Shown one piece after another: positions 1,203-12,058 of a DNA stretch of 49,235 nucleotides; positions within the stretch are counted from its first letter, which is position 1, and each line of letters starts with the position of its first letter. Below the pieces are notes generated by a model. That model made no database searches. It worked only from the letters and a program-made list of their open reading frames with translations, and was not told the DNA's origin. The position numbers and the translations under genes were made by a program. Origin of the DNA: Prevotella sp. (GTDB lineage Bacteria > Bacteroidota > Bacteroidia > Bacteroidales > Bacteroidaceae); assembly GCA_017475265.1 (NCBI GenBank), contig JAFVFY010000049.1, positions 1 to 49,235 of the forward strand. The letters run 5' to 3'.

Positions 1203-1658
1203 TCATATATTTTTTTCAAGTTTATTGCGATATTCATTTTTATAGGGATACAAACTACTCTGTTCGGTCACTCCAACGAACAGAATCCTGTCTGCCATTT
1301 CACATACATATCTGTTCCTGGCCATTGCTGTCACCTTTGATTGACGGATAGCATTACTAACAGAGATAATCAATAAACGGTTTTGAGCCAACGGCTCTTT
1401 TAATTCGTTAGGAATAACCTTATACATCCTTCGTGCAAGCACAATGATAATGGGCTGACTGCCTTTCAATAGGAAATGAAGCACGTCTTGCTCCAACTTG
1501 CTACTGAAACCGCTGACCACACACTCCCCTCGATTGCGCATCTCTGTTGCCCAGTCATACACTTGCAGCACCGTTTCCGAAGAAATGGTGCTCGAAGCCA
1601 AGAAGGCAGTCTTCCTAAGTTTCAACAGTTTCTGATTGCCAAGATACTCCACTTGCAT
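1203..1658 (-). CDS. Stand-alone DprA/SMF-like Rossmann-fold protein
   Basis: This 151-residue protein resembles the short DprA-like proteins of Bacteroidales islands. It has an N-terminal YLGNQKLLKLRKTAFLAS strand-helix, a GECVVSGFSSKLEQDVLHFL segment matching the 'VSG-x-x-S-x-x-E-x-D' pattern, and a third strand QPIIIVLARRM. Full-length DprA loads RecA on single-stranded DNA, but this form lacks the usual N- and C-terminal extensions. Short versions are known from mobile and defence islands, where their role is not settled. The last ~25 residues (FVGVTEQSS onward) are unusual and may have been replaced. It sits just downstream of the truncated AlbA fragment on the same strand, with a 10-bp gap. 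Confidence 0.65.
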   Translation of the reverse strand: MQVEYLGNQKLLKLRKTAFLASSTISSETVLQVYDWATEMRNRGECVVSGFSSKLEQDVLHFLLKGSQPIIIVLARRMYKVIPNELKEPLAQNRLLIISVSNAIRQSKVTAMARNRYVCEMADRILFVGVTEQSSLYPYKNEYRNKLEKNI

Positions 1659-1668
1659 TGTCTCTCAA

Positions 1669-2211
1669 TTACGTCTCTGCATTATTTTCAATAATTTCCC
1701 AGTGACCGCTATAACCACTGCCGACATATTTGATATGAGCGAGTTTAGCAATATGGCGTTTGATAGTTCTAAGTCCCTTTTTACTTATTTCTGCCAATTC
1801 TTCGGTAGTGATCTTTGGATTTTTCCTAATCTGATCTTCAATCCATATATCAAGTGCATCACCTTGAGTATCACCTTGAGTATCACTTTGAGTATCTCTT
1901 TGAGTATCACTTTGAGTATCACCTTGAGTGCCACCTTGAGTGCCATCTTGAGTGCCACCTTGAGTGCCACCTTGGGTGCCACCTTGGGTGACATCTTGAG
2001 GGACATCTTGAGTGACATCTACGGTTGAAGGTACGGTCACTTCAAATGCAGTCAACTTTGACATATCAAAAACGGCCTCCTTATTGCCATTATCAAGCAA
2101 CATATCCTGCACACGCCTTATACCTTGGTTGAACATATTGACATACTTCATCTCCTTCATGGCTTCCGCTATAATAGGATTGCGATAGTCATTCTTTATT
2201 TTGCAGTTCAA
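1669..2211 (-). pseudogene. C-terminal fragment of an AlbA-type ATP-binding/transcriptional-regulator protein
   Basis: The reading begins abruptly at NDYRNPIIAEAMKEMKYVNM followed by FNQGIRRVQDML, which is the late part of the AlbA_2/HATPase_c_4 proteins (often annotated as RNA- or ATP-binding regulators). The N-terminal AlbA domain and the front of the ATPase are absent. After KLTAFEVTV comes a Gly/Asp-Thr-Gln tandem repeat, then a winged-helix-like tail (KNPKITTEELAEISKKGLRT, IKRHIAKL). The fragment starts within the last codons of the DUF1016 gene (ATG at 2211, DUF1016 stop at 2189-2191), so the missing part was probably lost when the two genes were joined. It could still be translated by coupling to DUF1016, but would lack its main domain. 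Confidence 0.65.
1860..2021 (-). repeat. 12-bp tandem repeat encoding Thr-Gln-Gly/Asp units
   Basis: About 13 imperfect copies of a 12-bp unit (plus strand ACCTTGAGTRYC) encode a GTQG/DTQG/DTQS-like array. Because 12 is a multiple of 3, copy-number change alters protein length but not frame. Related ATP-binding proteins carry similar linkers (VTPQ/VPQ type), so this is a flexible linker within the gene. Confidence 0.85.
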
Positions 2212-3235
2212 AGATAGCTTTTTGCTTTTCTATCTCCCTTTGCAGTTCCTCTTGCGAAGGCAGAAAGGTCAGATATTTTGAGGCAAACAGTTGCTTGCTG
2301 TCGTGAAGCACAGAATAGCGGGCGATGTCCTCACTTGTCTCAGAACACAGTAGAAGCCCAATGGTGGGGTTGTCACCGTCAGTGCGTTTCAAATCGTCAA
2401 ACATCCGTACATACATATCCATCTGTCCTACATCTTGGTGCGTCACTTTCTGTGTCTTCAAGTCTATCAAAACATAACATTTCAGCACCACATTATAGAA
2501 GACAAGATCGATGAAGAAATCGCCTGCATCTGTTTTTATATGATATTGCTCAAACATAAAGGCAAAGCCTCGTCCCAATTCCAGCAAGAACGCTCTGAGA
2601 TGCTTAATGATAGACCTTTCAAGGTCGCTTTCCGTGTAGTCACTGTTTGATGGCAGTTGCAAGAACTCTGTCACTACAGGGTCTTTCAGAAATCCTCTTG
2701 CATCCTCCTGTAGCGGTGCTGTCAATGTTTGCATTTCAGCAATAACGGCCTCTTTCTTAGGTGATTGCAGCAGACGATGATAATACTGCGAGCCAACATT
2801 GCGTGCCAAAGTGCGAACACTCCACATCTCTCGTGATGCTTCCTTCACGTACCAGTATCTGGCATCGTCACTTGCAACTGAGAGTAATGTACGGAAGTGA
2901 GTCCACGTAAGATTTGGCACTCGCGAGTACCAAATCTCTAAATCGCTGAAACACAGATAGAACTGTCTATATGCTCTCAAGTCACGAGGCGTATATCCTT
3001 TGGCATAAGTCCTGCATAAATCTGCAGAAAGCATATTGATTATCTGCGCTCCGTATTCTGCCCTTTTCTCTCCTCGCTGTTCCTCTTCTACGATGCGTTT
3101 CCCCACTTGCCAATAAGTGAACACAGTTATGGCATTCACATTTTGATATGCCTTTTTCAGTCCACTCTCTACAATGTCTCTGACATCATTGATGAGACCC
3201 GACATCGTTGTCTGTATTGTATTCTTATCGTCCAT
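2189..3235 (-). CDS. DUF1016 (YhcG-like) PDDEXK nuclease family protein
   Basis: About 348 residues, full length for the family. The N-terminal half (TYWQVGKRIVEEEQRGEKRA, then LRAYRQFYLCF) is the DUF1016 helical domain. The C-terminal half holds the PDDEXK core: Asp in DAGDFFIDLVFYN and the YVLIDLK strand, followed by QDVGQMDMYVRMF and LLLCSETSEDI. Such proteins occur in restriction and mobile islands, where a nuclease role is inferred. I start at Met 3235 because the promoter element TAATTTTG at 3251-3244 overlaps the longer frame that would begin at 3256. The protein ends naturally (IEKQKAIFELQNKE). It is separated by about 240 bp from the protease operon and is probably its own unit. Confidence 0.85.
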   Translation of the reverse strand: MDDKNTIQTTMSGLINDVRDIVESGLKKAYQNVNAITVFTYWQVGKRIVEEEQRGEKRAEYGAQIINMLSADLCRTYAKGYTPRDLRAYRQFYLCFSDLEIWYSRVPNLTWTHFRTLLSVASDDARYWYVKEASREMWSVRTLARNVGSQYYHRLLQSPKKEAVIAEMQTLTAPLQEDARGFLKDPVVTEFLQLPSNSDYTESDLERSIIKHLRAFLLELGRGFAFMFEQYHIKTDAGDFFIDLVFYNVVLKCYVLIDLKTQKVTHQDVGQMDMYVRMFDDLKRTDGDNPTIGLLLCSETSEDIARYSVLHDSKQLFASKYLTFLPSQEELQREIEKQKAIFELQNKE

Positions 3236-3243
3236 ATCGTTTG

Positions 3244-3251
3244 CAAAATTA
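3244..3251 (-). promoter_or_regulatory. -7 element of the DUF1016 gene
   Basis: TAATTTTG on the minus strand matches TAnnTTTG and lies 8 bp before the chosen start codon, implying a leaderless or very short-leader mRNA. No clear TTTG is seen at the expected -33 distance. Confidence 0.45.
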
Positions 3252-3404
3252 CACATTTCTATTATTATAAACTAATCACAGACCAGTGCATGATTTTAAA
3301 CTCACGCAAATCTTGCCTGACTTGCGACAAGTCATAACATGTAGAACTTATAAATATATTTACTCCTGCCATAGTTCTTGTTTGTAATAAACGTCTCTTT
3401 TCGA

Positions 3405-3459
3405 GTTACCCACTAAGTGTATTATAGTTACCCATTAACTCTACAGAGTTAGCCAGTAA
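3405..3459. repeat. Three imperfect 12-bp direct repeats at 21-22 bp spacing
   Basis: GTTACCCACTAA (3405-3416), GTTACCCATTAA (3427-3438) and GTTAGCCAGTAA (3448-3459) recur with a period of about two helical turns between the protease stop (3479) and the DUF1016 start (3235). Confidence 0.6.
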
Positions 3460-3478
3460 CACAGAATAGTTTCTGTCT

Positions 3479-4324
3479 TTACAAATTAAATTTCTGCGTG
3501 ATAATTGGAACAAAGTCCATTATACGTTCTGCTTTGATGATATAGCCGAGATTATTGGGTATGTGAGATACTGCCAATGCTTTTTGTTGCATATTGGGAA
3601 TGGTAACAACCTTTATATCACCCGTAACGGTGAGTTGAGGTCCTGCATATAGTATACCTAACAAAAAAATTCTTGAATTTCCCCAGTTAAGATTCCCTTG
3701 CTTATCCCTGTAGCCACCAATATTACATATTAGCACTGGGGATCCACTGGAACCAGGGAAGCAAGCTGCATCAATCAAGAACTCTTTTCGACCATCATAA
3801 TCGAACTTAATGTCTGTGGCCGTTATTCCTTTGCGAACAATGGGCATGTTGTTTACAGAATCCCAAAGTCCATTAGGATAGCCTATCATTAATATTTCTT
3901 CAACAGCATCAAGAGTATTAAGTTGCTCTTTATTGGGAATGATAGTTTCGTCAAAAGACCTATAAAACAAAGACACACCATGTGCTTGTGCGATATTAAG
4001 GATATTCGCTACTGGTAATACACACAAATCTACATTATTATCAGGATGAAATAACCAACTTTGTTCAAACTTGTCAATCTGAATTTGGAAATGGTCTTTA
4101 TGAATAGGTTTTCCATTTGCGTCAGCCTTTGTTAATTTAAACATGCCGGTTGTCATTCCTCTAACAACATGTTTATTAGTAACAATTAATGGCACTATTT
4201 TACTTTCATTATGCTTATAGCTGAAAAAGAAGCCCGTTCCAGAATAACCATTACCGTTTGCATCTTTAGTTTCAATACGTGTAGTACTAAAGCATAACTG
4301 TTCCATTATTGAAAGTTTATCCAT
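3479..4324 (-). CDS. Trypsin-like serine protease, last gene of the methylase-helicase operon
   Basis: A 281-residue S1-type protease with no signal peptide, so probably cytoplasmic. The triad is visible: His52 in TNKHVV, Asp99 in NNVDLCVLPV and Ser193 in FPGSSGSPV. The glycine-rich strand before the His (GYSGTGFFFSY) is also typical. The N-terminus (MDKLSIMEQLCFSTTRIE) leads straight into the protease domain, so no separate sensor domain is present. The gene lies 20 bp after the membrane-protein gene in an otherwise gap-free operon, which argues for a function tied to the restriction-like genes. In other bacterial conflict systems such proteases act as effectors that cleave host or partner proteins; here that is an inference. 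The substrate is unknown. Confidence 0.85.
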   Translation of the reverse strand: MDKLSIMEQLCFSTTRIETKDANGNGYSGTGFFFSYKHNESKIVPLIVTNKHVVRGMTTGMFKLTKADANGKPIHKDHFQIQIDKFEQSWLFHPDNNVDLCVLPVANILNIAQAHGVSLFYRSFDETIIPNKEQLNTLDAVEEILMIGYPNGLWDSVNNMPIVRKGITATDIKFDYDGRKEFLIDAACFPGSSGSPVLICNIGGYRDKQGNLNWGNSRIFLLGILYAGPQLTVTGDIKVVTIPNMQQKALAVSHIPNNLGYIIKAERIMDFVPIITQKFNL

Positions 4325-4344
4325 ATTTTTTTCTATTTAATATA

Positions 4345-4815
4345 CTATAATTGTGGCGACTGAAGTAAACTACGATTATTTTCAAAATCATCGTCCCAAG
4401 TAATTCGGAGTTGTAAAACATCCGTGTGGCCTTCACATAAGAAAATACGTTCTTCCCTGCTTCCGTTGCGAGGCGTTATTAGCTCGTATGGCCCCCAATT
4501 TCTAATTCCTTCAACTCCTTCAAGTTTATCCTCGTTAAGAATTTCGATGCGAACATTGCGAGCATCAGACAACCCAGAATTATAGAAACGGACTCTACGA
4601 CTACCCTTATTCCCAGATAAAATGTTACACTCAACCTTTGCTTGCTTCTCTTGGTCTTCTGCTTTTTTGTATTGCTTTATCTGCAAATCATTTAATAATT
4701 GTTCTTGTGTCTTTATTCTCTTATCGTGACGATAATACATGAACAATCCACCTATGATTCCACAGATAGAGAACACATGCCCACCCCAATCTTTAAACAA
4801 ATCAACGAACCCCAT
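4345..4815 (-). CDS. Single-pass membrane protein of the defence-like operon, no known family
   Basis: I do not recognise a named family. The 156 residues begin with an amphipathic stretch and one hydrophobic segment (about residues 12-28, VFSICGIIGGLFMYY), followed by a charged coiled-coil-like helix (residues 30-62, rich in K, E and Q). The C-terminal part is beta-rich (VECNILSGNKGSRRVRFYNS, then VRIEIL) and resembles an Ig-like fold. This suggests a cytoplasmic domain held at the inner membrane. Its start overlaps the end of the zinc-ribbon gene by the shortest possible junction (4815/4817), indicating translational coupling. It may anchor the protease or the zinc-ribbon partner at the membrane. 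Confidence 0.7.
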   Translation of the reverse strand: MGFVDLFKDWGGHVFSICGIIGGLFMYYRHDKRIKTQEQLLNDLQIKQYKKAEDQEKQAKVECNILSGNKGSRRVRFYNSGLSDARNVRIEILNEDKLEGVEGIRNWGPYELITPRNGSREERIFLCEGHTDVLQLRITWDDDFENNRSLLQSPQL

Positions 4816-4816
4816 A

Positions 4817-5083
4817 TTATTTGAATTTTATGAATTTGTTTCCCTTAAAAGCTTTCCGAAGTTCATCCTGAATGTATGATTTTGCATCATCCGCTATCTG
4901 TCCTTTCAACTCATCAAAAGCTTCTTCATTCAATTCTTTCAATTCCTCGATTCCACCTAAGTACTCACGATTACACATCGTACATTTTACATACGACTTA
5001 TCATCATTAAACTCAAAATGGTCGTCACAGCCACAGGTTGCGCAACGCAACTTGACGGTGTAATTATCTTTTAACTTTTTCAT
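4817..5083 (-). CDS. Small zinc-ribbon protein of the defence-like operon
   Basis: This 88-residue protein carries two Cys-x-x-Cys knuckles, CATCGC near residue 14 and CTMC near residue 34, spaced as in a TFIIB-type zinc ribbon. A helical, acidic tail follows (EELKELNEEAFDELKGQIAD) and the protein ends in a basic patch (KAFKGNKFIKFK). Such proteins usually bind nucleic acid or act as adaptors. It sits 18 bp after the methylase and is coupled to the membrane-protein gene. I can name no orthologous family with a known function. Confidence 0.7.
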   Translation of the reverse strand: MKKLKDNYTVKLRCATCGCDDHFEFNDDKSYVKCTMCNREYLGGIEELKELNEEAFDELKGQIADDAKSYIQDELRKAFKGNKFIKFK

Positions 5084-5101
5084 CTTATCTTTTGCATATA
5101 G

Positions 5102-8100
5102 TTATTCTTCGTTTAATTCATCACCCATACGATATTTGATGTCGTAGTTGATGATGAAGTCTAATTCTTCTTCGGTGAAACCGTAATGAGAGGCGAGAAG
5201 TTTGTCTATCTCGTCAATGATGGATTTTGATTTCTTGGGTATTATACATTGTATGGTCAACGTATCATGGGCGAATTTCATAGTTCGCAATTCTGACGTT
5301 ATCCTAAGATTCTCCATTAATCTTTGAGAGAGCCTGGCAATTTGCTGCCCTGCATTCATGGTTAGAGAATCAAATGGAACCGGGAATGCTTCTACTTCGC
5401 GTTTATTGACATGGCGACAATCGGAATATACAGTGCAGAACCATAAAAACAAGTTGGAATTTAAAGCTAATAGAACTGAGTCAGCTTCAAAACTATTATC
5501 AAATAAGAGAGTTTTAAACTCAGAAGGGTCTCTCAGTGTACCATCATTACAACGTACCTCTGGCTTGAAATTGAGAACTTGGACAAAAGCTCCCAACTTA
5601 CGCGAGTAATAGATAATTTTGTGACCATGTCTATCTAACTTTTGTGCAAGAGCAAGGTTTCGTCTCGTCTTTTCGATAATGGAAATTTCTAATAGGGAGC
5701 GAAGTTTGGGCAGAGAGCCGTTAATGTATCCATTTGATGCGGATACATAATCGACCGTTTGGAATATGAAGTTACGTTCCTTTTCATTCCATTTTCTATA
5801 TCCTGTGCTATAAGAAATGTATGGATTAGATATTGCCGAAAGTAAATGTATTGACAGACGAATATGTTCTAATTGTTCGAAAAGTCTTGAAGGGCGGTCG
5901 TCATAATTTGAATACCAATGCGTATGATGATGGAATATTTCTTGTAATGCGATATACCTTTCTGTTGATACGGAAGAAACTGGTACAATGAATCCCATCT
6001 TGCCATGTTTCAAAGAAAGGAATTCACATCGCTCTATTATAGGTGCATACAAGTTCCCACATGACAATGTCTTATAGGACGGTGGAAGACTATAAGTTCG
6101 AACTTCTCTAAATTCCAAATATGGCGGATTACCAATAATCACATCAAAGCCACCATGGTCGTTGATGATTTCATAGAACTCAGCCAACCAGTGGAAGGGC
6201 TGGTGGGAACTGAGCCAGGCATTATAATCGATGGTGGAAGAGACGGAACCATACATCTGACGGTTCAGCAGGTCGTTGAGGGTAGCAAGACGGACCTTCA
6301 AGTCGTGCTTGGCGCGTTTGAAGGCTGCCATGTCCTCTGCCTGCGTCAGTTGGACGGTCTTGAACACATCGTAGGTCAGTGCCACCTTCTCCATCTCCTC
6401 CGTCACCTTGTTGCGGAACTCCTCAGCCGTGAAGAAATCGGAATAGGCAATGCCAGCCTCTAACTCTTTCTGCGTGGCATAGCCCACAAGGGTATTGCCA
6501 CAGCGGATGTTGAAATCAATATCGGGCAGCGGGTCGAGACCCAAGTTGGGGTCGCGCTTATCGACATCCACCACTGCCACCATCTTCAGGAACAGGCGGA
6601 GTTTGGCAATCTCAGTGGCCTCCACCATAATGTCAACACCATAGAGGTTGCGCAAGATGATGCTCTTGTAGATGAAGTACTGGATATTGGACCGGTATTT
6701 GTTTTGTATCTCCTGCAACTGACGGTTGAAAAGGTGCTGGTTCTTCTCGTGGAACTCCTGCATACGTGAGATGCACACCTCATAAAGTGGTTCAAGGATG
6801 TTGAGGGCAGCAAAGAGGAAGGCCCCAGAGCCACAAGTGGGGTCGAGGATGGTGACACGCTGTAAGACATCGTAGAAATACTCCACAAACAGGTGGTTCC
6901 GCGTATGCGACAGATAGTCGTAGGCAAACTGCCGGATGTCAAGATTGTAGGTGATGAAATCGTTGATAGCGGTAATCTCACCATTCTCTATCTTCGCCTT
7001 GATGCTGCGGTATCGCTGCAGCCGCTCGATGGTCTCTCGCCAAATCTCGGTAGGCAGTGCCAAAGCGTCGGGCGTACGCTCGTTCCAATGACTACGACGC
7101 TCCAAGAGATTGGGCTGCGTGGTATCAATGCCAACGGCTATTTCCTCTGGGATGGGCTGGTCGTGGCCCTTCTTTACTGCATCAAAGATGTATCGGTCGC
7201 CACTGTCGCGGAGGAACTGCCACAGTTCGCCATTCGTCTTGAAGAGTTTTTCGTCTTTCTGCTTCACCGCATCCATCAGATAGGGGATGATGGTGTTGCG
7301 ACCTATGTACTCCGTGATGTCCTCCTTGGTGTAGTAGGCTCCCATCTGGGCACGGTCGTTGATGTACTGCTCGAAGATATAGCCCAGCACGTCGGGATTG
7401 ATGTCGCGGCCCGTGGCCGTCATGCGGTCATCGAGGTGCCAGTGCCACTTGTCGAAGAAATCGAAGAGACTGCTGAAAGCCTCGTCGGCTATGTCAAGGC
7501 CGGCATAGTCCTGCTCTATCTGGTGAACATCGAACATACCACCATTCAGATAGGGGATGCGCCCATAGACGGATTCAAACGTCTGGTCATGGTGGGGGGC
7601 GTTCAGTCCATCGTGGAACAAACTGACGAGGAATCCTTTGTAGAACTTGTTGAAGAAGCGGTCCTCGCCCTCATTCTCCTGAGTCCACTCCAACTTATGA
7701 CGTAAGTAATCGACATCGCCGTCAAGGAAGCCTTTCTTCTGGATGAAGTAGCAGAACATGAGGCGGTTGAGCATCACGCTGGTGTACCACTGCTTGTTCT
7801 TGTTGTCCTTATCGGCCAAATGGTCGTCAATGCCCGTTATGAACTTGGCGAAATTGGTGTGCTCCTTCTTGAAGCCAGCATAGAAGTCCTTGGTGATTTT
7901 CTCGGAGTTGATGAGGAAAGCCGCCTGCACCTTCTCGATGATGTCAAGAATGGTGGGTGTCTCGTCGTCGAGCGAGAAGGAGAGTCCTTCCATCTTCTCA
8001 AACAGGAAACTGGCCTTATCGACAGTGTCGTATTCCACCAACACCAAGTCGCGCTTCTCCACTTTCTTGACAGGGGCTACCCAGAGATGGTGCATCGTGC

Positions 8101-8446
8101 CTGGCACCACGAAGATACAGATATAGTATTCGGCATTTTTGCGTAGTTTGGTATCCAGTTTCTTGCAGATGGACGAGACAGGAATCTCGTCAACCTTGCA
8201 TTGCAGAATCTGGAAGCCGCTACGCTCGGCTATCTGTTCTATTTGGAAGGTTCGTTGACTTCGTCTTCGTCCGTCACGACTCGGCCATTCAAACGAGTTT
8301 GATGGCTCTCGCTGTTCCGTCCGTTCATCAATGGTATATTCGGGCAGCAGGGTTGCACCCGAAGGATTGTTCCATCCCATCTCGGTGATGAACAACTCTC
8401 GGAAATTACTCTCTGACAGATATTGATTAAATACGTTTCTTTTCAT
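5102..8446 (-). CDS. Eco57I-type adenine DNA methyltransferase (restriction-modification family)
   Basis: A 1114-residue class-gamma N6-adenine methyltransferase. Motif I is DPTCGSGAFLFAAL near residue 535 (AdoMet binding) and motif IV is GNPPYLEF near residue 771 (catalysis). The C-terminus ends in EELDFIINYDIKYRMG, a tail shared by Eco57I and PglX-type enzymes. The N-terminal ~450 residues match the long leader domain of this group; I see no clear nuclease motif there, so cleavage is more likely done by the helicase partner. The target-recognition part should lie after residue 800. The start is 6 bp from the helicase stop, so the two are coupled. The role would be to mark host DNA as self. 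Confidence 0.9.
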   Translation of the reverse strand: MKRNVFNQYLSESNFRELFITEMGWNNPSGATLLPEYTIDERTEQREPSNSFEWPSRDGRRRSQRTFQIEQIAERSGFQILQCKVDEIPVSSICKKLDTKLRKNAEYYICIFVVPGTMHHLWVAPVKKVEKRDLVLVEYDTVDKASFLFEKMEGLSFSLDDETPTILDIIEKVQAAFLINSEKITKDFYAGFKKEHTNFAKFITGIDDHLADKDNKNKQWYTSVMLNRLMFCYFIQKKGFLDGDVDYLRHKLEWTQENEGEDRFFNKFYKGFLVSLFHDGLNAPHHDQTFESVYGRIPYLNGGMFDVHQIEQDYAGLDIADEAFSSLFDFFDKWHWHLDDRMTATGRDINPDVLGYIFEQYINDRAQMGAYYTKEDITEYIGRNTIIPYLMDAVKQKDEKLFKTNGELWQFLRDSGDRYIFDAVKKGHDQPIPEEIAVGIDTTQPNLLERRSHWNERTPDALALPTEIWRETIERLQRYRSIKAKIENGEITAINDFITYNLDIRQFAYDYLSHTRNHLFVEYFYDVLQRVTILDPTCGSGAFLFAALNILEPLYEVCISRMQEFHEKNQHLFNRQLQEIQNKYRSNIQYFIYKSIILRNLYGVDIMVEATEIAKLRLFLKMVAVVDVDKRDPNLGLDPLPDIDFNIRCGNTLVGYATQKELEAGIAYSDFFTAEEFRNKVTEEMEKVALTYDVFKTVQLTQAEDMAAFKRAKHDLKVRLATLNDLLNRQMYGSVSSTIDYNAWLSSHQPFHWLAEFYEIINDHGGFDVIIGNPPYLEFREVRTYSLPPSYKTLSCGNLYAPIIERCEFLSLKHGKMGFIVPVSSVSTERYIALQEIFHHHTHWYSNYDDRPSRLFEQLEHIRLSIHLLSAISNPYISYSTGYRKWNEKERNFIFQTVDYVSASNGYINGSLPKLRSLLEISIIEKTRRNLALAQKLDRHGHKIIYYSRKLGAFVQVLNFKPEVRCNDGTLRDPSEFKTLLFDNSFEADSVLLALNSNLFLWFCTVYSDCRHVNKREVEAFPVPFDSLTMNAGQQIARLSQRLMENLRITSELRTMKFAHDTLTIQCIIPKKSKSIIDEIDKLLASHYGFTEEELDFIINYDIKYRMGDELNEE

Positions 8447-8452
8447 CTTGTT

Positions 8453-11400
8453 TTAAGCTTTTAGTCCCATCGAGCAAATGATGGTGGGGTCTTTATGTTT
8501 TGTCCGGTCTTCATCGATTCGGCAAAGATTGGCATTCTCGTACATCTCGATGACAGTATCCACAATGTCGTCGTGGGTGCTGCCAGTGCGCATCATCCGG
8601 CCCAGGATAAACTTGGAGTTTTCCAACAGCGGATAGTTGTAAATCTGGTCGATGGCAAACTTCAACAACGCTTTCTTCTCCTGTGTATAGAAGAGGTTCA
8701 GGGGTTGCTCGTAGTAGTGATTCAGCAGGTCGTAAATCTTACGCTTCGTGCTGAAACGGCTACCAAGGATGCCGCCAACATTGGTATTCTCGTTTTTGAT
8801 GCCCTTGATGGCTTTCTCAACTAACGCTAAGTGGTTGTCCTGTGGCTCCAGTCTCGGCTCGTTGAGCGAGCAGGCCATAGACTGAAGGATGCGTTTCTGC
8901 GACTGGCTGACAATCTCACCTTTAGAGTTGAACCACGTCAGCACGTCAAAGTCATTATAGGTTCGGGCATATGTAATGACACCATCCTCGATGGCACTAT
9001 GAGCCTGTTTGGTGGAATAAGCAATATTGGGTATCTCTGGGATGATGCGTTTCAACTCAGGGTTGGCATCGGTGGCGTTCTTCCAGATCTGGAAAGCCTG
9101 CGAGCCGAGGTCTACGTCCACATCGTCCTCGTCTTCATCCAGACTGCCGCTCTTCTCGTTATACATATCGCGGAGGTTCTGCTCGTTGCCCTCAAAGAAC
9201 ACTTCGTCGCTACCCACAATACCAGCATTCTCATTGATACGGGCATTCAGACGGGTACGCAATCGGATAATCTCTTCTACCCTGTCGGCAGGGAAGAACG
9301 AATAGCAATAGATTTGCTCTGAACTCTGGTCGATACGGTCCACACGTCCGGCACGCTGAATGAGGCGGATGATGGCCCAAGGCAAGTCATAGTTCACAAT
9401 GACATGCGCATCCTGCAAGTTCTGGCCTTCACTGAGCACATCGGTAGCAATTAGCACCCGCAGTTCATTTTCTGCAGAGACATCCGCCTGATTGCTTAGT
9501 GGCGAGAAGCGTTCTACTATTGCCGTCGGATTTTTGCTGCCGCCCGTTGCCTTATCTATATGCTGTATGCCTCGCTTCTTCAACTGGTGATATATGTAGT
9601 TGGCGGTATCTGAGTACTGGGTGAACACAATGACCTTATCGCTGGTGTGTTTAGTGCAGAGAAGTTCTTGTAGTTCGTTGAGTTTCTGGTCAGTCTGTGG
9701 GTTCCAGGCATCGCAGAGGTTGATCATGGCTATCAACTGCTCACAGTCCTTCTTCAACTGCTGCTTCAGTGTGCGCTTAAAGTATTTGGCATCTATCCAC
9801 TGCACATTGTTCTTGCCTATCAAACCGTTATAATACTCCTCGGCCTTCTTCATATAGACGGCCATGTCGTTGGGAACCTGTATGAGATTGTCGCCGGATG
9901 CCTCTTCCTCCTGTTCGTCATCATTAGAAAAAATGTCGTTGATGTCGGCATCGTCAATGAAGTCTTCGGGAAAGGTGTTCTCGTCGCTGATAGGCAGTTT
10001 GAGTTTGTTGTCAATAGCATAGATAAACACAGCATTGCGCAAAATGTGACGGTACAGCGTCAGCAGGAAAGAAAAACCGCTGCTGTCAATACGCTTGAAG
10101 AAAGTGCTTTTGCAGAAGCCCATCATACGCTCGCCGGCACGGGAGAGATTGGCAATCAAGTCGCTTTCGTATTTGGAAGCATCTTCAGCCTTCTTCTCGT
10201 CCAAATAATGGATCAGTCCGTAGCGGGGTAGTTTCAGACTTTCCATCAGGCCTATCATCTCCACAGAATAGAGCCTGCTATACTGGTCGCCACTGACGGT
10301 TTTGAACTTTATTGCTTTGGGTACGCGGTCAGGGAAATAGGATTTGTGCCCGTCCTTAAACTCCAAGTACTTACGTCCGTTCTTGGGGTCGGTCTTGGCA
10401 TAGTTGTCTTTGATGAAGGTACGGGTACGGCGAACCAGGAAAAGTTTCATCAGTTCCTGCCAATCCTCCTGACACTCACTGCGCTCAAAAGCCTTGATAC
10501 TCCTGATGAAGTCCTCGTGCTTCTCGGCAAACTTACGCTCACCGCCAATCTCGCGGATGTAAGCTTCGGGGCGAATGCCTAAATCGGTGTCATCATCTAC
10601 GAACAGGCGCAGTTGGCTGCTCAAGTCCTTGTATTGCTTGTTATAGGGTGTTGCCGTCAGCAGCAACACCTTGCAGTCCTGCTTCTGAATAAGGTCGCGG
10701 ATGTTGCGATAGCGCGTGCCCTGACTGTTGCGAAGGTTGTGACTTTCATCGACAATAATCAGTTTGTAGTATCTTGCATTATCCACATCAATAGGCTTTG
10801 CCATCGACATGACGTCGGCCTTTAGGTCATATTGCCTGCGATACTTTGCCCACATATCTTGCAGATTGGCAGGACAGATAATCAGTGTATTGCTGCCAAA
10901 GGTGTTTTCATACATTTTGGCAATGGCACAGGCTGTGATAGTCTTTCCTAATCCCACTACGTCGCCAATCATAGCACCACCACGCTTCTCGTTGTTCAGA
11001 TGACGGGCAGCAATCTTGACTGCCGTCTGTTGGAAATCGAAAAGGCTGCTCTTGAATTCTGGTGGGATGGTAAACTCCTTGATACCAGTACGGGCTTCCT
11101 CACTCAGATGGTATGCTGTCTTCAAATATATATAATAAGGTGGTATTTCCTTTTCTCCTGCCCAACTATTGTCAATAATCTCTATCAGTTCTTTGGTGAT
11201 GTCAAGACAGAACTTGTCTTCCCAACGGTCATCGAACCAACGGGATAATTTTTCGGCGCTATCGCTGTCGCCAAATTCGGCATTCAGTTCTCCTTGCTTG
11301 GTCAATCCCGAATAAGTAAGATTGCTGCTACCCATAATGGCCTGAATCTTATTGAAGTTGTCATCAGGACGATGGGCAAGGTATAACTTGGCGTGAAGTG

Positions 11401-11830
11401 GTTCGCGTAAATACAGTTTCACACAAACCTTCTCGTCTTTCATCTGTGCTGATAGGCGACGAAGGGTAAACTCGTCTTGTTTAGTGGGCAGGCCCAACTG
11501 GAGTTGACGCTTGAAGTCGCGGGCAATCTCCAGTTTGCACTGACTGACATAGTTGGCATCAGGTAAGACCTGTTCTGTATAGAGTTGTCGAATCAATTCT
11601 TCTGCAGGCCGATGCATACCAATCAACAAACGACATTTGCGAAAGATACGTTTGTCGTTTTCATAGACATAATCGCCCGTAAGGGTATCTATTTGTTCTA
11701 CTACGAGATTCCATCCTCGCAGATTAAAATAGCCGACGCAAAAGTCCACACGCTTTACACCTACATTGGTAATAATACCCTGTAGTCCTTCTGCGAATTT
11801 GGTTTCTATATTATCGTAGATTCTTGCCAT
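8453..11830 (-). CDS. PLD-domain SNF2-family helicase/translocase
   Basis: This 1125-residue protein has an N-terminal phospholipase-D-like domain (about residues 20-220) containing HAKLYL at about 146 and GSSNLTYSG about 20 residues later, the pattern of PLD-type nucleases such as BfiI. A SNF2 ATPase follows: Walker A GDVVGLGKTITA near residue 295, Walker B DESHN near 361, LLLTATPYN, and motif VI QRAGRVDRID near 825. A PLD fused to a SNF2 motor is a plausible restriction effector: the motor moves on DNA and the PLD domain cuts. The D of a canonical HxK(x)4D is shifted (HAKLYLAHRPDD), so activity is an inference. It is the first large gene of the operon, 18 bp after the regulator. Confidence 0.9.
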   Translation of the reverse strand: MARIYDNIETKFAEGLQGIITNVGVKRVDFCVGYFNLRGWNLVVEQIDTLTGDYVYENDKRIFRKCRLLIGMHRPAEELIRQLYTEQVLPDANYVSQCKLEIARDFKRQLQLGLPTKQDEFTLRRLSAQMKDEKVCVKLYLREPLHAKLYLAHRPDDNFNKIQAIMGSSNLTYSGLTKQGELNAEFGDSDSAEKLSRWFDDRWEDKFCLDITKELIEIIDNSWAGEKEIPPYYIYLKTAYHLSEEARTGIKEFTIPPEFKSSLFDFQQTAVKIAARHLNNEKRGGAMIGDVVGLGKTITACAIAKMYENTFGSNTLIICPANLQDMWAKYRRQYDLKADVMSMAKPIDVDNARYYKLIIVDESHNLRNSQGTRYRNIRDLIQKQDCKVLLLTATPYNKQYKDLSSQLRLFVDDDTDLGIRPEAYIREIGGERKFAEKHEDFIRSIKAFERSECQEDWQELMKLFLVRRTRTFIKDNYAKTDPKNGRKYLEFKDGHKSYFPDRVPKAIKFKTVSGDQYSRLYSVEMIGLMESLKLPRYGLIHYLDEKKAEDASKYESDLIANLSRAGERMMGFCKSTFFKRIDSSGFSFLLTLYRHILRNAVFIYAIDNKLKLPISDENTFPEDFIDDADINDIFSNDDEQEEEASGDNLIQVPNDMAVYMKKAEEYYNGLIGKNNVQWIDAKYFKRTLKQQLKKDCEQLIAMINLCDAWNPQTDQKLNELQELLCTKHTSDKVIVFTQYSDTANYIYHQLKKRGIQHIDKATGGSKNPTAIVERFSPLSNQADVSAENELRVLIATDVLSEGQNLQDAHVIVNYDLPWAIIRLIQRAGRVDRIDQSSEQIYCYSFFPADRVEEIIRLRTRLNARINENAGIVGSDEVFFEGNEQNLRDMYNEKSGSLDEDEDDVDVDLGSQAFQIWKNATDANPELKRIIPEIPNIAYSTKQAHSAIEDGVITYARTYNDFDVLTWFNSKGEIVSQSQKRILQSMACSLNEPRLEPQDNHLALVEKAIKGIKNENTNVGGILGSRFSTKRKIYDLLNHYYEQPLNLFYTQEKKALLKFAIDQIYNYPLLENSKFILGRMMRTGSTHDDIVDTVIEMYENANLCRIDEDRTKHKDPTIICSMGLKA

Positions 11831-11848
11831 AATAACACTTCTAAAACA

Positions 11849-12058
11849 CTATTCTTCTTCTGTCCAAAGTAAATCATCTACACTCACACCCAATATTTTT
11901 GATAATTGGATGAACATTTCCACATTTGGCTGGGCGGCATTAGTCACCCATTTTGATATGACAGCAGGATCTTTATCAAGGATTTCCGACAATTGTTTGT
12001 TGGTCATTCCCTTCTCTGCAAGTACCACCTTCAGGCGGTTAATTCGTTTACGTTCCAT
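11849..12058 (-). CDS. XRE-family transcriptional regulator of the operon
   Basis: About 69 residues forming one Cro/CI helix-turn-helix: LAEKGMTNKQLSEILDKDPA is the HTH core and the protein closes with LSKILGVSVDDLLW. I choose Met 12058 (MERKRINR) rather than the upstream Met at 12091. The -7 promoter element TAAATTTG (12086-12079) lies inside the longer frame, so the mRNA would start after the first ATG. As the first gene of the operon, 18 bp before the helicase, it probably represses or times expression, as C-proteins do in restriction systems. Confidence 0.85.
   Translation of the reverse strand: MERKRINRLKVVLAEKGMTNKQLSEILDKDPAVISKWVTNAAQPNVEMFIQLSKILGVSVDDLLWTEEE

What the first reader, a model, noticed from the sequence alone, without database searches (positions are those of the whole stretch)
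3479..12058. Six-gene operon: XRE regulator, PLD-SNF2 helicase, Eco57I methylase, zinc ribbon, membrane protein, trypsin-like protease
All six genes are on one strand, with gaps of at most 20 bp and one coupled junction, between two integration scars. The helicase with an N-terminal PLD domain and the class-gamma methylase form a plausible restriction core, but the three downstream genes are not part of type I, II, III or ISP restriction, BREX or DISARM as I know them. This is the best candidate in the window for an undescribed defence system, one that would combine self/non-self DNA marking with a protease effector.
Basis: partly seen in the sequence, partly recalled or inferred. Interest (0 to 1): 0.85.

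Follow-up and report, generated by a model that had tools for sequence, protein, structure and literature searches.

The report
Restriction core with swappable defence cargo
This Bacteroidota locus looks like a restriction-type DNA defence core whose overlooked third partner is a small DprA-like protein, while the protease, membrane and zinc genes are interchangeable add-ons found elsewhere on their own.

Summary
I fetched the 80 best relatives of the helicase; none holds the protease, membrane or zinc-ribbon gene intact (46 of them keep at least 4 kb beyond the methylase; one has a decayed membrane-gene fragment). A phage-like contig carries these three genes together, followed by a PrrC-like ATPase. 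The methylase's target-recognition region is exchanged independently of the rest, and the stretch between methylase and DprA-like gene is a slot for changing cargo (YhcG, RhuM, AAA_15, DUF3644, DarT and others). Here it holds two unrelated mobile modules: a zinc-ribbon/membrane pair (ECs_2282/DUF8453; plasmids, filamentous prophages) and the solo protease PDC-S45 (plasmids; once in a type I-like operon with YhcG), plus YhcG. Most likely: an ATP-dependent R-M-like system with backup effectors in its operon. That arrangement is known for R-M and BREX loci; the DprA-like partner and the tidy slot are a new variant. Function is inferred throughout.

The parts
11849..12058 (-). XRE/Cro-type regulator (69 aa)
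   Evidence: HTH_3 3.4e-11; an XRE of this kind lies just upstream of the helicase in 6 of 80 loci; other XRE types were not counted
8453..11830 (-). Core 1: helicase, N-terminal PLD (HKD) domain plus SNF2 motor, 1125 aa
   Evidence: Pfam; H146, K148, S168, S169, N170, K296, T297, D361-H364, R826, R829 in 56 of 56; D157 only 42 of 56
5102..8446 (-). Core 2: Eco57I/BrxX-like adenine methylase, 1114 aa
   Evidence: Pfam Eco57I; D535, P536, G539, G541 and N773-P775 in 56 of 56, Y776 is Y in 51 and W in 5; closest folds BrxX/PglX
5232..6113 (-). Target-recognition cassette of the methylase, exchanged between relatives
   Evidence: DNA identity to L059 (92-96% before it, 98.5% after it) vanishes here; median protein identity 25-27% whatever the helicase identity
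5102..5231 (-). Conserved methylase 3' tail, between recognition cassette and cargo slot
   Evidence: 98.5% DNA identity to L059; many of residues 1073-1108 nearly invariant in 30 sequences; lost or displaced in G101 and L064
2194..5101 (-). Cargo slot: replaced by unrelated DNA in the closest relatives
   Evidence: L059/G491 homology stops at 5101 and resumes at 2193
4817..5083 (-). Cargo A1: zinc ribbon, ECs_2282-like, 88 aa
   Evidence: NCBIfam NF047912 2.6e-5, below cut-off; plasmid relatives
4345..4815 (-). Cargo A2: membrane protein, DUF8453-like, 156 aa
   Evidence: relatives directly after the zinc ribbon on plasmids
3479..4324 (-). Cargo B: trypsin-like protease PDC-S45, 281 aa, putative triad H52-D99-S193
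   Evidence: PADLOC 399 bits; the three residues kept in every true relative that reaches them
3265..3372 (-). Cargo remnant: start of a DUF4062 gene
   Evidence: Pfam DUF4062 E 1.3e-4 on 35 aa, just below the cut-off; DNA
2189..3256 (-). Cargo C: YhcG/DUF1016 PDDEXK nuclease, 355 aa
   Evidence: YhcG_C 1.3e-52; PDC-S02
1669..2211 (-). 3' part of an AlbA_2/HATPase gene; residues 1-338 missing
   Evidence: a 492-aa copy without the loss in G491
1203..1658 (-). Core 3: DprA-like protein, 151 aa
   Evidence: PF02481 4.6e-7, at the cut-off; same-strand downstream partner in 35 of 46 loci; fold closest to ShosA/DprA

Best explanation
A three-component, R-M-like core with a cargo slot. The methylase reads a short site with its C-terminal recognition region and marks host DNA. 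The SNF2 motor moves on unmarked DNA, and its N-terminal PLD domain is the most likely nuclease. The DprA-like protein, a minimal ShosA/DprA fold, most likely binds single-stranded DNA made by the motor or restrains the nuclease. The XRE protein controls the operon. The genes between methylase and DprA-like gene are exchangeable backup effectors: here a membrane-anchored zinc-ribbon pair, a trypsin-like protease and a YhcG nuclease, each likely to act on its own when the core is blocked or evaded. Shown: gene content, motifs, exchange of recognition region and cargo, DprA-like linkage, independent life of the cargo. Inferred: every biochemical step and any role in phage defence.
For: Core: 73 of 80 helicase loci have the methylase on the same strand within 1 kb; six of the other seven hold under 1 kb after the helicase. 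DprA-like: 34 of 46 loci with at least 4 kb after the methylase, 35 with L059, whose copy lies 324 bp past the fetched end; within 100 bp of the methylase in 9 of the 40 loci that have it. It is rare otherwise, 9 of 198 genomes of the order, yet present in 4 of the 5 with a close helicase (Fisher p = 1e-5; 1.8e-4 without the own genome). In 20 genomes behind loci (11 picked because they had it, 9 because none was seen) 12 have a strong match, and in all 12 it is the copy at the locus. A 34-kb viral contig with terminase, lysozyme-type and transposition-protein genes carries helicase, methylase and an overlapping DprA-like ORF, then a PrrC-like ATPase. Helicase identity tracks DprA-like identity (rank r 0.62, permutation p 0.0005) but not recognition-region identity (0.04, p 0.31) in 38 loci. 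Cargo.
Against: No activity is shown. The DprA-like gene is not seen in 11 of 46 loci, and 8 of 8 genomes of such loci that I searched whole have no strong match, so the core has subtypes without it. It also occurs away from the close helicase (4 of its 9 genomes have neither the close nor a listed distant helicase). The methylase's N-terminal 160 residues were not assigned a fold on their own; a hidden nuclease there is not excluded. Linkage of cargo to the core could be passive accumulation in a defence island.
Confidence: 0.6

Rival explanations
1. One reading: the six genes form one dedicated system in which the methylase-helicase core triggers the protease as effector.
For: Tight operon on one strand with gaps up to 20 bp; a fragment of the membrane gene (50 aa, 70% identity) sits just after the methylase in P. 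falsenii L064, so that module was in this slot at least twice.
Against: Zinc ribbon, membrane protein and protease are intact in none of the 80 core loci, 46 of them with at least 4 kb beyond the methylase. The protease family was found in 12 of 296 and the membrane protein in 1 of 296 phylum genomes, the own one. 14 protease stretches and 9 zinc-ribbon/membrane stretches from elsewhere hold no helicase of this kind, no DprA-like gene and not each other.
Confidence: 0.06
2. The cargo genes are passengers (selfish toxin-antitoxin or moron genes) that gain from sitting in a mobile, selected locus and add nothing to defence.
For: Rapid turnover, remnants (DUF4062 start, truncated AlbA_2) and life on phages, prophages and plasmids.
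Against: Much of the cargo is of defence or conflict type (PDC-S02, PDC-S05, AriA/PtuA-like hits), and PDC-S45 with YhcG recurs in a type I-like operon.
Confidence: 0.2
3. The DprA-like protein belongs not to the core but to an AlbA_2-DprA-like cargo cassette or toxin-antitoxin pair that often lies downstream.
For: AlbA_2 precedes the DprA-like gene in the window (remnant), L061 and G491; G087 has an AlbA_2-like gene (my reading) and DprA-like gene with no core in the 18 kb fetched.
Against: In 9 of 40 loci it follows the methylase within 100 bp with no gene between, and in the phage contig the two ORFs overlap; its identity tracks the helicase.
Confidence: 0.18
4. The core is an epigenetic or replication/repair system rather than restriction.
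For: No experiment shows cleavage; SNF2 motors of this type are nearest in sequence to RapA among solved structures.
Against: PLD H146 and K148 in 56 of 56, exchanged recognition region, and defence-type company.
Confidence: 0.06

Closest known systems
R-M operons with embedded backup effectors (PrrC/RloC, HEPN, RhuM, Doc), PMC3710099 (passages read)
   Same: Restriction core plus genes of other toxicity encoded in the neighbourhood; RhuM, DUF3644 and PrrC-like genes also seen here
   Different: The passages read name no DprA-like partner
BREX and DUF499-centred BREX-related (Hma) systems, PMC12839542 (abstract, section 28, section 35 part 1, passages)
   Same: BrxX-like adenine methylase, SNF2 helicase (HKD-fused in type 2 BR), auxiliary and backup effectors in the locus
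   Different: No DUF499/BrxC ATPase or PglZ among the window operon proteins; a DprA-like protein instead ('DprA' and 'SLOG' have 0 hits in that main text)
Type IIG R-M (PADLOC REase_MTase_IIG PDLC03628)
   Same: Methylase matches that model nearly end to end (947 bits); recognition region fused to the methylase
   Different: Separate PLD-SNF2 helicase gene; no conserved nuclease motif recognised in the methylase N-terminus
ShosTA / PsyrTA / DprA-PRTase (PMC9122126, two passages read)
   Different: No phosphoribosyltransferase partner seen; protein is half the length of ShosA
DISARM class 1
   Same: SNF2 helicase (DrmD) plus adenine methylase (DrmMI) resemblance
   Different: DrmD score 145 against a cut-off of 610; no DrmB or DrmC among the operon proteins

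Membership tests
Type IIG R-M | Methylase with fused recognition region | tested here: met
Type IIG R-M | Nuclease in the same polypeptide | tested here: inconclusive
   No conserved acidic-x-Lys motif seen in the N-terminal 165 residues of 56 sequences; full-length model only moderate (pLDDT 75.5, pTM 0.58)
Type I R-M | Separate HsdS specificity subunit | tested here: not met
   No HsdS among the 10 proteins of the locus scanned with Pfam
Type ISP R-M | Helicase, methylase and nuclease in one polypeptide | tested here: not met
   Helicase and methylase are two genes
BREX | PglZ and BrxC in the operon | tested here: not met
   None among the locus proteins scanned; rest of the genome not searched
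DUF499-centred BR / Hma | DUF499 AAA+ ATPase in the operon | tested here: not met
DISARM | DrmB, DrmC and a DrmD above cut-off | tested here: not met
   DrmD model 145 bits, cut-off 610; no DrmB/DrmC hit listed
ShosTA / PsyrTA | DprA-family antitoxin | tested here: met
   PsyrA model matches 20 of 24; fold nearest to ShosA; antitoxin activity not tested
ShosTA / PsyrTA | PRTase or RecQ-like toxin partner | tested here: not met
   Neighbours are helicase, methylase and cargo
PADLOC PDC-S45 | HMM match over the full protease | tested here: met
   399 bits, residues 1-278
ECs_2282 / DUF8453 pair | Zinc ribbon directly followed by the membrane protein | tested here: met
   Same order, both detected, in 5 of 9 stretches (L055, L057, L058, L174, L177; the first and last two nearly identical); only one of the two detected in L056, L175, L176, L189
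All | Anti-phage activity | not testable with these tools
   needs experiment

The most novel reading that the evidence does not exclude
A distinct R-M-like class of three proteins (PLD-SNF2 helicase, BrxX-like methylase, DprA/ShosA-like protein) in which the DprA-like protein is the single-stranded-DNA sensor or antitoxin that couples the motor to whatever backup effector sits in the slot. The locus would then be a plug-in immune platform: recognition region and effector are exchanged independently around a fixed core.
Probability: 0.25. Interest if true: 0.72.

Novelty: new variant of a known kind. Interest (0 to 1): 0.48.

Why it matters
If the core is real, a methylase that PADLOC files as a lone type IIG enzyme works with a dedicated helicase-nuclease and a DprA-family protein, and such annotation misses most of the system. 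It would also give DprA-like proteins, known as antitoxins in ShosTA and its kin (PMC9122126), a role beside a restriction motor. The slot gives a searchable place to find new effectors: whatever lies between this methylase and this DprA-like gene. The zinc-ribbon/DUF8453 pair and the PDC-S45 protease become testable as stand-alone modules.

Tried and rejected
Protease relatives in viral contigs: none. Relatives of the E. coli membrane protein in phage records: none; in viral contigs one (L189). Protease and DprA-like protein against solved-structure sequences: none. Coupling of recognition-region exchange to cargo exchange: not seen by eye only; three pairs with a shared recognition region (L059/L103, L069/L085, L074/L077) have different downstream genes. 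Sigma-70 promoter scan: 24 found against 26.2 expected, no use here. Literature: nine word searches listed no paper that, from title and abstract start, describes PLD-SNF2 helicase + methylase + DprA-like genes as a unit; only four papers were opened (PMC12839542, PMC9122126, PMC3710099, PMC12429752), in part, and subscription journals are not held. A tenth search was for PDC-S45. Cargo labels for G156 and G112 (proteasome-like, ParA-like, Gabija-like), the HsdR/M/S labels in L167 and L152, and AlbA_2 in G087 are my reading of the sequences, not HMM results.

Full report
What is there. The six genes exist at the stated coordinates on the - strand with intergenic gaps of 18, 6, 18, 1 and 20 bp. 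Pfam gives HTH_3, PLDc_2 plus SNF2/Helicase_C, Eco57I and Trypsin_2; the zinc ribbon and membrane protein have no significant Pfam family. PADLOC files the methylase as REase_MTase_IIG (947 bits), the protease as candidate PDC-S45 (399 bits) and the helicase nearest to 'HKD+Snf2' (179 bits, partial).

The last three genes are not part of a conserved unit. I searched 198 genomes of the order with the helicase: 5 have a close relative (the own genome, G101 at 87%, and G090, G112, G156 at about 50%), 25 only a distant one. The four others have helicase and methylase side by side but other downstream genes. Zinc ribbon, membrane protein and protease gave no intact hit in any of the 80 (phmmer, tblastn). 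Many of the 80 are cut short: 46 keep at least 4 kb beyond the methylase, and those carry the argument. One decayed trace exists: the last 50 residues of the membrane protein, 70% identical, directly after the methylase in Prevotella falsenii L064.

The recognition region is exchanged. Against L059, whose helicase is 99% identical, the methylase keeps 90-100% identity in every 60-column block up to about residue 765, falls to 16-52% over about residues 765-1070, and returns to 98.5% DNA identity over the last 131 bp. Over 1540 pairs of 56 methylases the median identity of this region is 25-27% in every band of helicase identity from 40 to 100%, while the N-terminal part follows the helicase and the tail stays at a median of 77-86%. 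The same recognition region recurs in distant backgrounds (L059 and L097: 73%, helicase 63%). In 38 loci with all parts in full, helicase identity tracks the methylase N-terminal part (rank r 0.95) and DprA-like identity (0.62; permutation p 0.0005 for both), not the recognition region (0.04, p 0.31). This is what a specificity determinant under diversifying exchange looks like.

Between methylase and DprA-like gene lies a slot. In the closest relative the homology stops at the methylase stop codon (5101) and resumes at 2193 inside AlbA_2. L059/G491 has a DUF4145-type gene, an unassigned gene and a YobI ATPase there, and a 492-aa AlbA_2-type gene without the loss seen in the window. In 57 cargo proteins that I selected (see Tried and rejected; 3 lie between helicase and methylase) Pfam finds DUF1016 in 5, RhuM in 4, HATPase_c_4 in 4, AAA_15 in 3, AlbA_2 in 3, DUF3644, KAP, KilA-N and PIN in 2 each, and DarT, macro, FRG, Panacea and M78 in 1 each; 25 of 53 families are listed. 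The window's slot holds zinc ribbon, membrane protein, protease, a DUF4062 remnant and YhcG.

The window's cargo is two unrelated mobile modules plus YhcG. The protease family is on plasmids of Exiguobacterium, Nitrobacter, Acinetobacter, Kocuria, Moraxella and others (21 records, 10 with one place covering at least 80%; six neighbourhoods read) and downstream of the lysis genes of phage SfII, behind an IS911. It is in 12 of 296 phylum genomes; the membrane protein is in 1 of those 296, the own one. None of 14 protease stretches holds the zinc ribbon, the membrane protein, this helicase or the DprA-like gene. In G291 a 42% relative closes a type I-like operon that also holds YhcG, so the same two cargo genes meet again around another core. 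H52 and D99 are kept in 13 of 14 aligned rows, the exception being a spurious ORF; S193 in every row that reaches it. PDC-S45 has been listed from PADLOC in Sinorhizobium prophages (PMC12429752, two passages read). The zinc ribbon and membrane protein form a pair of their own: both are detected, adjacent and in this order, in pColV-C1, pR997, pQL2, E. coli A29 and E. coli AF6. In a filamentous prophage of E. coli 510016 the zinc ribbon is followed by a gene of the right size that tblastn does not recognise; in F11 and in viral contig L189 only the membrane gene, and in a Vibrio plasmid only the zinc ribbon, is found. DNA of the E. coli pair matches 104 of 5426 E. coli genomes (79 with at least 80% cover); annotations read ECs_2282 and, in newer records, DUF8453.

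Mechanism. I take the core to be an ATP-dependent R-M-like system. The methylase resembles BrxX/PglX and shows no conserved nuclease motif in its N-terminus, so the PLD domain of the helicase, with H146 and K148 in 56 of 56, is the likely nuclease. The DprA-like protein may bind the single strands made by the motor or restrain it. Backup effectors embedded in R-M and BREX loci are an established idea (PMC3710099, passages read; PMC12839542, abstract, section 28, section 35 part 1 and passages). I read the protease, the zinc-ribbon pair and YhcG as such backups. None of these functions is shown.

Standing against this reading: the loci are near relatives, mostly MAGs; 11 of 46 lack the DprA-like gene; AlbA_2 and DprA-like genes sometimes travel together and might be a cassette; cargo may be passengers. 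The finding is a new variant of a known kind, not the six-gene system proposed.

Noticed in passing
window 8255-8323: A palindromic, in-frame insertion of about 69 bp (23 residues) in the methylase, absent from 55 of 56 aligned methylases. The host genome holds 5 copies of the palindrome pattern (up to 2 mismatches) against 0 for the reversed control; two others lie inside ORFs (HAD-type and SDR-type by my reading). It resembles the Rickettsia palindromic elements (recalled).
   Followed up: partly
window 4345-5083; L055, L057, L058, L174, L176: The zinc-ribbon/DUF8453 pair is a small mobile module of conjugative plasmids, of pR997 next to McrBC-type genes, and in part of E. coli filamentous prophages; function unknown, a candidate superinfection or defence module.
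   Followed up: partly
L190 2422-11768: A phage-like contig with a transposition-protein gene carries the helicase-methylase-DprA-like unit followed by a PrrC-like ATPase, between a lysozyme-type gene and head genes.
   Followed up: partly
L149 9683-10084; L043 5863-5967: An unrelated ORF ends in the methylase family's conserved 40-residue tail (80% identity), and in G101 a stranded 35-residue tail (91%) follows a methylase that ends without it, as if the tail were a recombination junction.
   Followed up: no
window 3403-3460; L061 18914-18971: A 58-bp intergenic stretch (81% identity) after two unrelated cargo genes, with repeated GGTAAC words.
   Followed up: no
window 1860-2014: Twelve-bp tandem repeat, 12.9 copies, inside the AlbA_2 remnant; reads as TQGG/TQGD repeats in protein.
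   Followed up: no
L166 5507-9628: A PDC-S45 protease gene lies between two ORFs of the same length and identical N-terminal sequence (group II intron reverse transcriptase by my reading).
   Followed up: no
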